Source of the DNA: an uncultured Bacteroidia bacterium
Lineage (GTDB): Bacteria; Bacteroidota; Bacteroidia; NS11-12g; UBA955
Assembly: GCA_943788195.1 (NCBI GenBank)
Contig: CALSPH010000001.1
Span: forward strand, 1,375,595 to 1,439,594
Direction of reading: 5' to 3'
DNA length: 64,000 nucleotides
Made by a program: the position numbers and the translations under genes. Under the pieces are notes generated by a model that did no database searches, was not told the DNA's origin, and worked only from the letters and a program-made list of their open reading frames with translations. Positions 13,934 through 34,498 of the stretch are shown here, piece by piece; the stretch's first letter is position 1, and each line of letters starts with the position of its first letter.

Positions 13934-14474
13934 AATGAAAGAGAAGCATCAGGATAAGTCAGGTAAAAAAGACGATGATGACGATGATGATGATGACAAA
14001 GACTCAGCTTCAATGAATGGAAAAGACAAAAGCAATAAAGGTAAAGTCAAAAGTGAAAAAGCTAAAGAAAATAAGTCTGATAAGTCAAAGGATGATGATG
14101 ATGGAGATGATGACGATGGGGACGATGATGATGATGGCGATGATGACGATGATGATGACAAAGCAGATAAGAAAGACAAATCAAATAACAAGGGCGGAAA
14201 AGGGTCTAAGGACGAGATGATGAAGAAAAAGGCAGATAAAAAGTCTGAAGTGAAAGAGAAAGCAAATAGCGCTCATAAATCCATTGAGAATTACCAGGCT
14301 AGAATTGATAAGGCCCAAAAGAAGTTAGATGATGAAAAAGCAGCTGGAACCATTACAGAGGAAGAGGTAGCCAAAAAACAAGCAAAAATAGAAAAGGCGA
14401 AAGAGCAGTTAGCCAAAATGAAAAAGCATTTGGAAGAACAAGATGCTAAAATGAAAGAAATGGAAACAGAGTAG
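13914..14474 (+). CDS. Asp/Lys-rich low-complexity protein
   Basis: The frame from ATG 13914 encodes 186 residues with runs of up to nine Asp near residues 20-28 and several Asp/Gly runs around residues 61-82, built from GAT/GAC repeats. These are separated by Lys/Ser-rich stretches. The last 85 residues are a strongly predicted charged coiled coil (KAQKKLDDEKAAG, EEVAKKQAKIEKAKEQLAK). No signal peptide is present from this start. Poly-Asp tracts may bind divalent cations or keep the region unfolded; no function is known. A terminator follows at 14500. See the upstream entry for the possibility of a frameshift joining the two. Confidence 0.6.
   Translation: MYKKKDEMKEKHQDKSGKKDDDDDDDDDKDSASMNGKDKSNKGKVKSEKAKENKSDKSKDDDDGDDDDGDDDDDGDDDDDDDKADKKDKSNNKGGKGSKDEMMKKKADKKSEVKEKANSAHKSIENYQARIDKAQKKLDDEKAAGTITEEEVAKKQAKIEKAKEQLAKMKKHLEEQDAKMKEMETE
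13967..14162 (+). repeat. GAT/GAC trinucleotide repeat tracts encoding poly-Asp
   Basis: Two clusters of near-perfect GAT/GAC triplets occur, around 13970-14000 and 14090-14160, the second interrupted by GGC/GGG Gly codons. Such tracts can change length by slippage in whole codons. Confidence 0.8.
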
Positions 14475-16669: not shown

Positions 16670-16795
16670 TTAAAATGCATGATTGTTTACTTTCTTCTTC
16701 ATATTTATTAAGGATGTTGTAAAGATCGCAGTAAGCTCGTCCGCTTTTTTTAAAAGAGCAATTGCTTCAATCCATTTTAATACTTGGTGTTCCTT
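16670..16795 (-). pseudogene. C-terminal remnant of an S23/four-helix-bundle gene
   Basis: An open stretch of about 41 codons on the minus strand reads KEHQVLKWIEAIALL, then KKADELTAIFTTSL, then KKKVNNHAF and a stop. The ADELTAIF-x-SL block strongly resembles the C-terminal helix of the four-helix-bundle family once called the 23S rRNA intervening-sequence protein (S23). Upstream in the same frame there is a stop codon just inside the end of the M20 gene, and there is no start codon, so only the tail survives. A full S23 gene of a different sequence lies at 33317-33676. Confidence 0.6.
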
Positions 16796-31227: not shown

Positions 31228-31896
31228 ATGTGGAGCGTAAAAGATAAGTTAGATTCAGGCATTTTAATATTGAAACCAACCGATACGGTGCAGGTAGCAA
31301 AAGATTTGCTTGTGGATCAACAACTTTTAAAACTTCCAGTGGTGGAGCATGGGAAAATTAGCTATGAAGTTCGTTTAGATTCACTTTCAGAAATGCCAGA
31401 TGATGGCGTTTTATCGGATATAGAAGAAATTCAGAACAAGGCGGTATTACATGCCCAACCTGAACAACATTTCTTTCAAGCGCTTCAAATGATTGTTGAA
31501 GATGCCAAAAGTTTAAGCTTGTCTGTGGTGGATAAAGATGGAGCTTATGTAGGAATTGTTCGATTAAAGGATTTAGCTACTAACTATGTGCCACCAAATT
31601 ACCTTGCCGAACAAGCCAGTTTAATCGTACTGGAAATGGATGAGCACGAGTATAGCTTAACCAATATTGCCAATATTGTAGAGTATAACCGATGTAAAAT
31701 TTTGCAATCTTTAATTGTAGGAGTAGAAGACCGTAAACTCTGGGTGCAGCTAATTATTAATAGCACTACCATCCAAAGTACATTGGAAGGTTTTGAGCGT
31801 TATGGTTACTCAATTATCTATACGCAAAACCAAATGGATGGAGAGTCTCCATTGGAAGATCGTTACAAATCTTTATTAAAATACCTTGACCTCTAA
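31228..31896 (+). CDS. CBS-domain protein
   Basis: A 222 aa cytosolic protein with two CBS motifs in residues 1-125: the first around LKPTDTVQVAKDLLVDQQLLKLPVV, the second around HAQPEQHFFQALQMIV and LSLSVVDKDGAYVGIVRLKD. The remaining part (130-222) resembles an ACT-like fold with EQASLIVLEMDEHEYSLTNIANIVEYN. CBS pairs sense adenine nucleotides. It overlaps the following POTRA/barrel gene by 11 bases, so they are coexpressed, an arrangement that suggests control of envelope assembly but is not proof. Confidence 0.82.
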   Translation: MWSVKDKLDSGILILKPTDTVQVAKDLLVDQQLLKLPVVEHGKISYEVRLDSLSEMPDDGVLSDIEEIQNKAVLHAQPEQHFFQALQMIVEDAKSLSLSVVDKDGAYVGIVRLKDLATNYVPPNYLAEQASLIVLEMDEHEYSLTNIANIVEYNRCKILQSLIVGVEDRKLWVQLIINSTTIQSTLEGFERYGYSIIYTQNQMDGESPLEDRYKSLLKYLDL

Positions 31897-33250
31897 GTGG
31901 ATCTTAGTTATTTGTGCATTGCTTGCATTTAATGCTGCAACAGCTCAAGATTCATTGCGTATTTGCGCCATAAAAATTTCGGGCAATAAAAAGACACAAG
32001 AATGGGTCATTTTACGTGAAATGAATGTAAAAATGGGCGATCAATTGGCCCATTCAGATCAGAAATCAATTTTTGAAAAAGACAAAAAACAGCTTTTGAA
32101 TAGTGGCTTATTTAATGAGGTTGAAATTCAGATAACCGGTTGTCAATTAATTGTGACTGTTCGTGAAAAGTGGTATTTCTGGCCCATACCAATTATAGAT
32201 CTGGCCGATCGGAACTTCAATCAATGGTGGTTGAGTAAAGATCCCAAACGGCTGATTTACGGCACAGAATTAAAGTATGAGAATGTAAGAGGTAGAAATG
32301 AAAAGCTATTAGCGAATTTAACTTTAGGTTACACTAAACAAGCGGATGTTACCTATCTAATCCCCGTGATAAAAAAGCGACAGAACCTTGGTTTTGCATT
32401 TAATGCCGCATACTTGGCGAATAAAGAAGTTTGGTATGCTACGGACAGCAACAAAGTTCAATTTCACAATGACGTGAACGAAGTAGGGATTAAACGCTTT
32501 AAGGCAAGTGCAGGAATCATAAGGCGGAAGGGAATCAATCAATATCAATACTATAACTTGAAATGGGAGCATGCCAGTACTGTAGATACGATTGTTCAAT
32601 TGAATCCAAACTTCTTCAGCAATGGAAATAAGCAACTCAGCATTTTTACATTGAACTATAATTTTGTGTTGGATAAACGAGATATTAGAGGGCAACCACT
32701 GTCAGGGAATTACTTTAATATTAATGCCAATCTGAATTACTTAGATCCACCAGACCAATTTGTTCCAGTTTTAAATTATAGAAGTTCTCACTTTAAACCT
32801 TTGGGTGGTAAATGGTTTTCTAGTTTTGGTTTGCATGCAAAACTATCTAGTCCGAACAATCAACCGTATCGTTATAACCGAGCCATTGGGTATGATTACA
32901 ACGTGATTCGTGGTTATGAATTTTATGTGGTTGATGGACCCAATTCAGGGGTGGTAAAAACGAATTTGAAATATGCCTTATTGGTCAATAAAACCTATAA
33001 TTTCGGTTTTATGCCCGTAAAAAATTACAAGGAAGCTAATAATTCTCTATTTTTATTGTCATTCTACGATATTGGTTATGCGGATAATCCAAATGCAGAA
33101 ATTAGCAACACATTCAGCAATCAGTTATTGTATGGTTATGGAGTAGGTCTAGAATGGATTGTTTGGTATGATCGAATGGTTCGATTTGAAGTTTCTCGAA
33201 ATCATCTCAATGAAATAGGCTTTTTTGTTAGCTTTAAAATGGGGGTTTAG
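31886..33250 (+). CDS. POTRA/BamA-TamA-like outer membrane assembly protein
   Basis: This 454 aa exported protein starts at TTG 31886 with a signal peptide ending AATAQ. One POTRA-like domain follows (about residues 22-95: LRICAIKISGNKKTQEWVILREM, then LLNSGLFNEVEIQI), then a C-terminal beta barrel of about 350 residues with strand-like repeats such as LLANLTLGYTKQ, NFNINANLNYL and the final strand IGFFVSFKMGV. This is the Omp85 architecture with a single POTRA, shorter than BamA (about 800 aa). It may help insert or secrete outer membrane proteins. Its stop codon touches a heptamer array. Confidence 0.82.
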   Translation: MTSKWILVICALLAFNAATAQDSLRICAIKISGNKKTQEWVILREMNVKMGDQLAHSDQKSIFEKDKKQLLNSGLFNEVEIQITGCQLIVTVREKWYFWPIPIIDLADRNFNQWWLSKDPKRLIYGTELKYENVRGRNEKLLANLTLGYTKQADVTYLIPVIKKRQNLGFAFNAAYLANKEVWYATDSNKVQFHNDVNEVGIKRFKASAGIIRRKGINQYQYYNLKWEHASTVDTIVQLNPNFFSNGNKQLSIFTLNYNFVLDKRDIRGQPLSGNYFNINANLNYLDPPDQFVPVLNYRSSHFKPLGGKWFSSFGLHAKLSSPNNQPYRYNRAIGYDYNVIRGYEFYVVDGPNSGVVKTNLKYALLVNKTYNFGFMPVKNYKEANNSLFLLSFYDIGYADNPNAEISNTFSNQLLYGYGVGLEWIVWYDRMVRFEVSRNHLNEIGFFVSFKMGV

Positions 33251-33291
33251 ATGTTGGAAGTTAGGTGTTGGGTGTCAGGTGTCAGGTGTTT
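33250..33291 (+). repeat. Left heptamer array beside the S23 gene
   Basis: Six 7-base units in a row: GATGTTG, GAAGTTA, GGTGTTG, GGTGTCA, GGTGTCA and GGTGTTT. The first unit is identical to the unit of the right array read on the opposite strand, so the two arrays are inverted around the S23 gene. Confidence 0.75.
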
Positions 33292-33316
33292 GCAGCTGCT
33301 GATATTGCTCATTTGG

Positions 33317-33676
33317 CTAAATCAGTTTTTTTCTAAAAGCAATCATCATATTCATTAATTTAAAGGCATCTGAATAATAATTATCAAATTGGTTCTGGGT
33401 TATATATTTTCTATTACCAGCTTTATATAGACATGTAACAACCTCTGCTAAAGATCTTATTGAATACCCCATAAATTTACGAAATTGCGGAACACTTTGT
33501 AGGATTGAGCCTTCAGCGATATTCAATGCAATTGAATCAGCCGCTCTTCTTATTTGTGATGATAGATTGAATTTTTCTATTTCTGGAAACTTTTTGGCCA
33601 GTTCATTCATTTCTTCACCAAAACTCATTGCTTTCTTCCAAATATTAAGTTTTTCAAATTTAAACTTAGGCTCCAC
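33317..33676 (-). CDS. Four-helix-bundle protein (S23/23S rRNA intervening-sequence family)
   Basis: A 119 aa protein of the S23 four-helix-bundle family, named from intervening sequences in 23S rRNA genes and related to the Avd accessory protein of diversity-generating retroelements. Family blocks are FEKLNIWKKAMSFGEEM, FNLSSQIRRAADSIALNIAEG (residues 38-58) and a helix with SIRSLAEVVTCLYKA. Its molecular role in cells is unresolved; Avd binds nucleic acid and reverse transcriptase. It starts with GTG at 33676, four bases after a TATCTTTG promoter box. The gene is enclosed by inverted heptamer arrays; no reverse transcriptase lies nearby. Confidence 0.9.
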   Translation of the reverse strand: MEPKFKFEKLNIWKKAMSFGEEMNELAKKFPEIEKFNLSSQIRRAADSIALNIAEGSILQSVPQFRKFMGYSIRSLAEVVTCLYKAGNRKYITQNQFDNYYSDAFKLMNMMIAFRKKLI

Positions 33677-33680
33677 GATT

Positions 33681-33688
33681 CAAAGATA
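33681..33688 (-). promoter_or_regulatory. Promoter -7 box of the S23 gene
   Basis: The minus strand reads TATCTTTG, four bases before the GTG start at 33676, so the mRNA should be leaderless. Confidence 0.55.
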
Positions 33689-33713
33689 CTATAAACACTT
33701 TTCAATTTTCAAA

Positions 33714-33895
33714 CATCCAACATCAGGCATCCAACATCAGGCATCCAACATCAGGCATCCAACATCAGGCATCCAACATCAGGCATCCAACATCAGGCAT
33801 CCAACATCAGGCATCAAACATCAGGCATCCAACATCAGGCATCAAACATCAGGCACCAAACATCAGGCACCAAACATCAGGCATCTAAAACCAAA
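33714..33895 (-). repeat. Right tandem array: 12 units of 14 bp
   Basis: Twelve uninterrupted 14-bp units run from 33714 to 33881, mostly CATCCAACATCAGG, with variants CATCAAACATCAGG and CACCAAACATCAGG in the last five, then a decayed unit. On the minus strand they read GATGTTG alternating with GATGCCT. No spacers separate the units, so this is not CRISPR. The right end shows more variants, as if the array grows from the left side. Confidence 0.92.
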
Positions 33896-33988: not shown

Positions 33989-34498
33989 ATGTTAAGTAAG
34001 ACAATGAACAAGGCGCTCAATGAGCAAATTAAAATAGAAGGACAATCATCCAATATCTATTTGGCTATGGCCAGTTGGGCTGAGATTCAGCCTGGTTTAG
34101 AAGGAGTGACTGAATTTTTATACATGCATTCTGATGAAGAACGCATGCACATGCTGAAGTTGATTCATTTTGTGAATGAGCGAGGCGGATTTGCAGAAAC
34201 ACCTGCTTTCGAAAAACCAAGCTTAACGTATCCATCCGTTCACCACGCATTTAAAGAATTGCTTGCGCATGAAATTTTTGTGAGTGAAAGCATCAATGAA
34301 TTGGTAGATCAAGCCTTGAAAGAAAAGGATTATGCAACCCATAATTTCTTGCAATGGTATGTGAGTGAGCAAATAGAAGAAGAACGTCTTGCACGCACTT
34401 GTAATGACAAGTTAGAGATGATTGGTGATGATAAAAGTGGATTGTACTTGTTTGATAGAGACATTTTAACCCTTTCTCAAGAAGGAGAAAAAGCATAA
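33989..34498 (+). CDS. ftnA: Ferritin
   Basis: A 169 aa ferritin (non-heme) that stores iron as a 24-subunit shell. Ferroxidase ligands are visible: Glu16-type in QIKIEGQSSNIYLAMASWAE, Glu and His in HSDEERMHMLKLIHFVNERGG (residues 46-66), Glu near HEIFVSESINEL and Gln-Glu in YVSEQIEEERLA. Length and helix order match bacterial ferritin FtnA rather than bacterioferritin, as no heme-binding Met stands out. A weak promoter-like box CAAATTTG ends four bases before the ATG. It precedes kdsA on the same strand by 20 bases. Confidence 0.95.
   Translation: MLSKTMNKALNEQIKIEGQSSNIYLAMASWAEIQPGLEGVTEFLYMHSDEERMHMLKLIHFVNERGGFAETPAFEKPSLTYPSVHHAFKELLAHEIFVSESINELVDQALKEKDYATHNFLQWYVSEQIEEERLARTCNDKLEMIGDDKSGLYLFDRDILTLSQEGEKA

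What the first reader, a model, noticed from the sequence alone, without database searches (positions are those of the whole stretch)
33250..33895. S23 four-helix-bundle gene enclosed by inverted heptamer arrays
The S23 gene (33317-33676, GTG start, own promoter box) sits between a left array of six 7-bp units on the plus strand (33250-33291) and a right array of twelve 14-bp units (33714-33881), which on the minus strand read GATGTTG alternating with GATGCCT. The first left unit is GATGTTG exactly, so both arrays are built from the same heptamer and face each other in inverted orientation. The whole 646-bp block lies between a POTRA gene and ferritin. This looks like a mobile or self-spreading unit, with the arrays as ends. 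S23 proteins are related to Avd of diversity-generating retroelements, which bind nucleic acid. Inference: the arrays are the protein's DNA or RNA targets, or end structures of an element. A remnant S23 tail at 16670-16795 suggests the family has moved before.
Basis: partly seen in the sequence, partly recalled or inferred. Interest (0 to 1): 0.75.

Follow-up and report, generated by a model that had tools for sequence, protein, structure and literature searches.

The report
S23 gene cassette ending in arrays
A small helical-protein gene (S23) sits between two mirror-image arrays of 7-bp repeats, and the same layout recurs, with a different repeat each time, at S23 genes in many bacterial phyla, where the whole block can be seen as present, absent, copied or swapped, so it looks like an undescribed mobile DNA element whose ends are repeat arrays.

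Summary
The window holds an S23 (PF05635) gene on the minus strand, 33317-33676, between a 42-bp and a 172-bp array in inverted orientation. Of 158 S23 genes fetched, 85 have flanks that match as inverted repeats, against 6 of 245 control genes (48 of 87 independent sites; p about 1e-27). The arms are arrays of degenerate 7-8-nt units; the unit differs between loci but is shared by both arms. The pattern holds in Bacteroidota, Patescibacteria, Desulfobacterota, Verrucomicrobia and cyanobacterial plasmids. The block behaves as one movable unit: empty sites lack both gene and arrays; one Patescibacteria pilin operon has two copies 99.3% identical that end at the arrays; different cassettes occupy the same site. 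Insertions lie between co-directional genes, mostly in sense, with no consistent target-site duplication and no reverse transcriptase needed. S23 is under purifying selection (dN/dS 0.07). Best reading: a mobile element related to rRNA intervening sequences. That S23 binds the arrays, and how the unit moves, is inference. Solo arrays without S23 exist. No empty site was found at the window's own junction, and the claimed S23 remnant is not supported.

The parts
33250..33885 (-). whole element as described here: 5' array, S23, 3' array in S23 sense (minus strand)
   Evidence: inverted flank match; arrays; relatives' empty and filled sites show the block comes and goes as one unit
33714..33885 (-). 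5' array of the element (upstream of S23): 12.3 copies of a 14-bp double unit, GATGTTG/GATGCCT on the minus strand
   Evidence: TRF score 302; only here in the genome
33681..33713 (-). promoter-like TTTG-N21-TATCTTTG just upstream of the GTG start
   Evidence: read from sequence; consensus from general knowledge of Bacteroidota promoters; not tested
33317..33676 (-). S23 / 23S_rRNA_IVP gene, 119 aa, GTG start, four-helix bundle
   Evidence: PF05635 E=1.2e-30; AlphaFold pLDDT 97; 2gsc TM 0.94
33250..33291 (-). 3' array of the element (downstream of S23): six 7-bp units, written GATGTTG..GGTGTCA on the plus strand
   Evidence: array begins on the last base of the POTRA stop codon
31886..33250 (+). 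flanking POTRA gene (not part of the element)
   Evidence: PF07244 E=4.5e-6
33989..34498 (+). flanking ferritin gene (not part of the element)
   Evidence: PF00210 E=3.4e-37

Best explanation
The block is one copy of a mobile genetic element of roughly 0.4-0.9 kb that carries a single gene, S23, and whose two ends are inverted arrays of a short (7-8, sometimes 9-10 nt) repeat, a different repeat for each cassette lineage. SHOWN by comparison: gene and arrays are gained as one block, are lost or decay leaving arrays, are exchanged for other S23 cassettes at the same site, and duplicate to new sites; they sit in gaps between co-directional genes, usually in the sense direction; insertion leaves no consistent target duplication and often replaces a few bases of the gap; S23 is under purifying selection. 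INFERRED (about 40%): S23, an Avd-like four-helix bundle seen as five chains in its crystals, binds single strands of the array with one subunit per 7-8-nt unit, which would explain the period and why both arms share a unit; it folds the two arms together, protecting or pairing the intermediate, and host replication or repair enzymes join the copy into exposed intergenic DNA by short homology. No enzyme of its own is visible and no reverse transcriptase is required.
For: Inverted flanks in 85/158 S23 genes vs 6/245 control genes, 48/87 independent sites; period peaks at 7 and 8 next to S23 only, G>C in the 5' arm and C>G in the 3' arm; cassette-specific units in other phyla. Empty sites: gdh|pepT 4 filled, 6 empty with 15-47 bp gaps; sdhA|sdhB; folE|cysS 13 filled, 17 without; plasmid sites at about 98, 95 and 92% identity. 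Dispersal: two copies 99.3% identical over 426 bp, ending at the arrays, in one pilin operon. Cassette swap: L038/L067 flanking proteins 98.5% identical, S23 49%, arms unrelated; the S23 tree pairs L038 with L223 and L067 with L066 whereas the flanks pair L038 with L067. Two unrelated S23 types with their own arrays at folE|cysS. S23 relatedness predicts arm similarity across non-orthologous sites (0.072 vs 0.047, sd 0.004). dN/dS 0.07. No RT in 11 of 19 carrier genomes, own genome included.
Against: No movement has been seen in the laboratory or between strains of one species. About 45% of S23 genes have no arms above threshold. Solo arrays are common in Kordia, so arrays are not exclusive to S23. 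Same-site swaps could be ordinary homologous recombination in the flanking genes. Binding of S23 to arrays is untested, and the protein carries no known catalytic motif. The window's own junction has no empty-site comparison.
Confidence: 0.75

Rival explanations
1. The arrays are host minisatellites that exist anyway, and S23 genes merely land in them or use them as recombination sites.
For: 16 of 17 noncoding arrays in 400 kb of Kordia lie away from S23; one AGTTATG array family is scattered over about ten places there; array-only gaps at sdhA|sdhB and folE|cysS.
Against: Empty sites in close relatives contain neither gene nor array. Solo arrays lack an inverted partner while S23 copies have one with the same unit. 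Several array-only gaps keep scraps of S23, which makes them remnants.
Confidence: 0.15
2. S23 cassettes are resident regulators in operons: the arms form an mRNA hairpin, as in rRNA intervening sequences, cut by RNase III or tuning expression of the next gene.
For: 119 sense vs 13 antisense insertions between co-directional genes; 58 vs 9 by independent site; S23 stop overlapping the next start in some operons; purifying selection; Coxiella IVS stem processed by RNase III (PMC4990558).
Against: Mismatches between arms are not biased towards G-U pairs (361 vs 462 of the opposite type). Antisense copies, including the window, have higher arm-match scores (median 21.2 vs 15.8). The window's promoter lies inside the 5' array.
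Confidence: 0.2
3. A retroelement: S23 acts like Avd with a reverse transcriptase supplied in trans.
For: Fold match to Avd and to Avd in the DGR ribonucleoprotein (TM about 0.76); sense bias.
Against: No RVT_1 gene in the own genome or in 10 other S23-carrying genomes, several 99% complete, one with 9 S23 genes; the control rings as expected.
Confidence: 0.05
4. No transposition: cassettes spread only by homologous recombination between flanking genes at old sites.
For: Recurrent sites across genera (folE|cysS, sdhA|sdhB, thiolase|acyl-CoA dehydrogenase); swaps with near-identical flanks.
Against: Near-identical copies at different junctions of one operon; two different S23 elements one gene apart in related Nostoc plasmids; many unrelated host operons.
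Confidence: 0.15

Closest known systems
Intervening sequences (IVS) of 23S rRNA genes with an S23 ORF (Leptospira, Coxiella; PMC4990558)
   Same: Same protein family; similar size (428 nt in Coxiella); S23 ORF enclosed by terminal inverted repeats; patchy distribution and horizontal transfer; mobility mechanism unknown.
   Different: Here the host is the gap between protein-coding genes of operons, not rRNA helices; the ends are tandem arrays with a unit that changes from cassette to cassette; the gene can lie antisense with its own promoter; no sign of selection for an RNA stem.
REP sequences and REP-associated transposase (RAYT) genes (from general knowledge)
   Same: A single gene flanked by inverted copies of a repeat that also occurs alone elsewhere in some genomes.
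   Different: S23 is no Y1 HUH nuclease and has no known catalytic site; arrays are 7-8-nt tandem repeats, not REP palindromes.
Dispersed heptamer arrays: TAACTGA (PMC4679880), GGGAATC in Xanthomonas and GGGGA(T/C)T in Nostoc (PMC4692102)
   Same: Intergenic 7-nt tandem arrays, often transcribed or near gene starts; similar units are seen at S23 arms in cyanobacteria (AGGGAGT/GGGGAGT).
   Different: Those papers describe arrays alone; the searches for S23 or four-helix terms in them gave nothing and one states that no transmission mechanism is evident.
Avd of diversity-generating retroelements
   Same: Four-helix bundle, TM about 0.76 to 4dwl and 8ube.
   Different: No RT, no template or variable repeat; sequence identity about 8-11%.

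Membership tests
PF05635 / S23 four-helix bundle family | profile match above curated cut-off | tested here: met
   106.2 bits vs 33.8, E=1.2e-30
PF05635 / S23 four-helix bundle family | four-helix bundle fold as in 2gsc and 2rld | tested here: met
   pLDDT 97; TM 0.94 to 2gsc
23S rRNA intervening sequence (IVS) | lies inside a 23S rRNA gene | tested here: not met
   lies between POTRA and ferritin genes
23S rRNA intervening sequence (IVS) | S23 ORF between terminal inverted repeats | tested here: met
23S rRNA intervening sequence (IVS) | excised from RNA by RNase III | not testable with these tools
   needs RNA data; wobble test gives no sign of an RNA stem
Classical DDE insertion sequence | own transposase | tested here: not met
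   only S23 between the arrays
Classical DDE insertion sequence | fixed-length target-site duplication | tested here: not met
   in relatives: 5 bp GTAAT at one clean site, but a 3-bp overlap or loss of 1-42 bp at others
Diversity-generating retroelement | reverse transcriptase in the genome | tested here: not met
   none in own genome
REP/RAYT | Y1 HUH transposase | tested here: not met
   S23 is the only gene in the block; Pfam shows PF05635 alone
Mobile element in general | filled and empty sites in relatives, gene and ends gained together | tested here: met
   for relatives:
Mobile element in general | empty site for the window copy itself | tested here: inconclusive
   POTRA-ferritin neighbourhood not conserved in 29 loci

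The most novel reading that the evidence does not exclude
S23 elements are a distinct class of mobile DNA, spread over many phyla, that moves with a non-enzymatic repeat-binding ring protein instead of a nuclease or RT, and they are the source of many of the unexplained intergenic heptamer arrays of bacteria (cyanobacterial short tandem repeats, TAACTGA and GGGAATC arrays), the solo arrays being their remains.
Probability: 0.3. Interest if true: 0.93.

Novelty: new variant of a known kind. Interest (0 to 1): 0.82.

Why it matters
Proteins annotated 'four helix bundle protein' or 'S23 ribosomal protein' are common and unexplained, and rRNA intervening sequences have lacked a mobility mechanism for over 30 years. 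Bacterial heptamer arrays are likewise known without a cause. If S23 genes travel with arrays as ends, these puzzles meet in one testable system: a small protein, its cognate repeat, clear filled and empty sites, and natural pairs of cassettes to swap. It would also explain why such genes interrupt core operons (sdhA|sdhB, folE|cysS, cas6|cas4) and would be a mobile element without an evident recombinase.

Tried and rejected
S23 remnant at 16670-16795: E=9, rejected. RNA-stem selection: wobble test goes the other way. RT dependence: RT absent from most carriers. Fixed target-site duplication: one clean 5-bp case, not repeated at other sites. Window empty site: POTRA orthologues have different neighbours. 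Wide S23 alignments were too diverse for the collection scan; a four-sequence alignment worked. No S23 relative of the one query in phages. Promoter enrichment in antisense copies: only 2 of 13 have TAnnTTTG near the start, so the window's promoter is not a general rule. Literature: no paper in the held library links S23 genes outside rRNA to repeat arrays, but subscription journals are largely missing. The query was an S23-like sequence I composed, used only as bait; its hits are natural records.

Full report
WHAT IS IN THE WINDOW. The gene called at 33317-33676 is an S23 / 23S_rRNA_IVP gene (PF05635, E=1.2e-30) on the minus strand, between a POTRA gene (31886-33250, plus) and a ferritin gene (33989-34498, plus). 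The left array is six 7-bp units at 33250-33291 and begins on the last base of the POTRA stop codon; the right array is 12.3 copies of a 14-bp double unit at 33714-33885. Read in the sense of S23, the long array is upstream and the short one downstream, and they are inverted relative to each other (score 20.4; shuffle maximum 14.8; direct 11.0). The array sequence occurs only here in the genome. A promoter-like TTTG-N21-TATCTTTG lies between array and start codon. The genome's second S23 gene is a weaker match and has no arrays.

A RULE ACROSS S23 GENES. S23 genes were collected from relatives and from named genomes. For each, the 300 bp before the gene were aligned with the reverse complement of the 300 bp after it. 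A score of at least 16 was reached by 85 of 158 S23 genes and by 6 of 245 other genes in the same loci; in direct orientation the numbers are 26 and 8. With one gene per independent insertion site it is about 48 of 87 (Fisher p about 4e-27). The 150 bp on either side of S23 show excess self-match at periods 7, 8 and 9 and their multiples, absent 750-900 bp away; G exceeds C in the 5' arm and C exceeds G in the 3' arm. Examples of 5' units: GGTCGGT, GGGTTTC, GTTTATAAAA, GGATTAGACA, GTTTAATCG, TTCGTAT, AGTGAACGG, AGAAGCC, AGTTGAT. Both arms of a locus share their unit; different loci, even in one genome, do not. The same holds in a second set of Patescibacteria, Desulfobacterota, Verrucomicrobia, Flavobacterium, Lutibacter and Kordia genes and on plasmids of cyanobacteria, Azospirillum, Gemmatirosa and Riemerella.

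IT COMES AND GOES AS A BLOCK. In one genus of the window's family the gdh|pepT junction carries S23 with arms in four genomes and is empty, 15-47 bp and no arrays, in six. At sdhA|sdhB four genomes have S23, many are empty, and two keep arms without the gene. At folE|cysS 13 of 30 Flavobacterium species carry S23 and 17 do not; some of the latter keep arms with a decayed or internally deleted gene, others have a Flavo-1 RNA. On plasmids, Trichormus variabilis pC differs from Microchaete, Tolypothrix and Nostoc plasmids 98% identical to it by exactly this block; similar pairs exist at other sites. The first shows a 5-bp duplication, GTAAT; the other sites show a 3-bp overlap or loss of 1-42 bp of the gap, so there is no fixed target duplication.

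IT COPIES AND IS SWAPPED. In a Patescibacteria pilin operon S23 elements lie between successive genes; two copies are 99.3% identical over 426 bp and the identity ends at the outer ends of the arrays; a third is 86% identical. At gdh|pepT two genomes with flanking proteins 98.5% identical have S23 proteins only 49% identical and unrelated arms. In the S23 tree L038 groups with L223 and L067 with L066, against the order given by the flanking genes, and the arms follow the S23. At folE|cysS two unrelated S23 types, each with its own array, occupy the same site. Across non-orthologous sites, more similar S23 proteins have more similar arms (observed 0.072; permuted 0.047, sd 0.004).

WHERE IT SITS. 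S23 lies between two co-directional genes in 132 of 141 loci, sense in 119 and antisense in 13; by independent site about 58 sense and 9 antisense (p about 2e-10); co-directional siting itself is only mildly above background (p about 0.009). The window belongs to the antisense class, which has higher arm-match scores (median 21.2 vs 15.8, p=0.01) and wider gaps. S23 is under purifying selection (dN/dS 0.07; folE 0.03).

HOW IT MAY WORK. The model of the window protein (pLDDT 97) matches 2gsc (TM 0.94) and 2rld, each with five chains in its entry, and Avd alone or in the DGR ribonucleoprotein (TM about 0.76). No enzyme motif is known. RT genes are absent from the own genome and ten other carriers, so the Avd analogy does not extend to an RT. 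Mismatches between arms do not favour G-U pairs, which argues against selection for a stem in the sense RNA. I therefore infer, at about 40%, that S23 binds single strands of the array, one subunit per unit, holds the arms together, and that host replication or repair inserts the copy by short homology. The movable block is shown by comparison; the binding and the chemistry are not.

LIMITS. About 45% of S23 genes have no arms above threshold. In 400 kb of Kordia 16 of 17 noncoding arrays have no S23 nearby and no inverted partner, and one array family is scattered in that genome: arrays are not exclusive to S23, and whether solo arrays are remains of elements is open. The window's own junction has no empty-site comparison.

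WHAT IS KNOWN. rRNA intervening sequences carry S23 between inverted ends and have no known mobility mechanism (PMC4990558). Heptamer arrays are described in Beggiatoaceae, cyanobacteria, Bacteroidota and Xanthomonas (PMC4679880, PMC4692102) without a link to S23. A genome paper lists a four helix bundle protein between guanylate kinase and nadD in Flavobacterium columnare among phage regions (PMC5524665). I found no paper in the held library that describes S23 genes flanked by inverted arrays as a mobile element; most subscription journals are not held.

Noticed in passing
L263, L275, L291 (folE|cysS gap): Flavobacterium species without S23 at this junction often carry a Flavo-1 sRNA (RF01705) there instead; S23 and Flavo-1 look mutually exclusive at this site.
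   Followed up: partly
L292-L311 (Kordia algicida 300-700 kb): Sixteen solo 6-10-nt tandem arrays without S23 or inverted partner; an AGTTATG array family recurs at about ten places in the genome.
   Followed up: partly
L362, L364, L365: S23 elements sit inside CRISPR operons of cyanobacterial plasmids: cas6|S23|cas4 in Anabaena and Pseudanabaena, cas10|S23|cmr3 in Picosynechococcus.
   Followed up: no
L132 4018-6340: The 3' array of an S23 element is read through as the start of the next pilin gene (S23 stop overlaps the ATG), so array units encode part of the pilin leader region.
   Followed up: no
window 14091-14158: GAT-rich tandem repeat (TRF), probably an acidic low-complexity stretch inside a coding region.
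   Followed up: no
L010 1465-1827: The own genome has a second, divergent S23 gene (43.6 bits) with no arrays nearby.
   Followed up: partly
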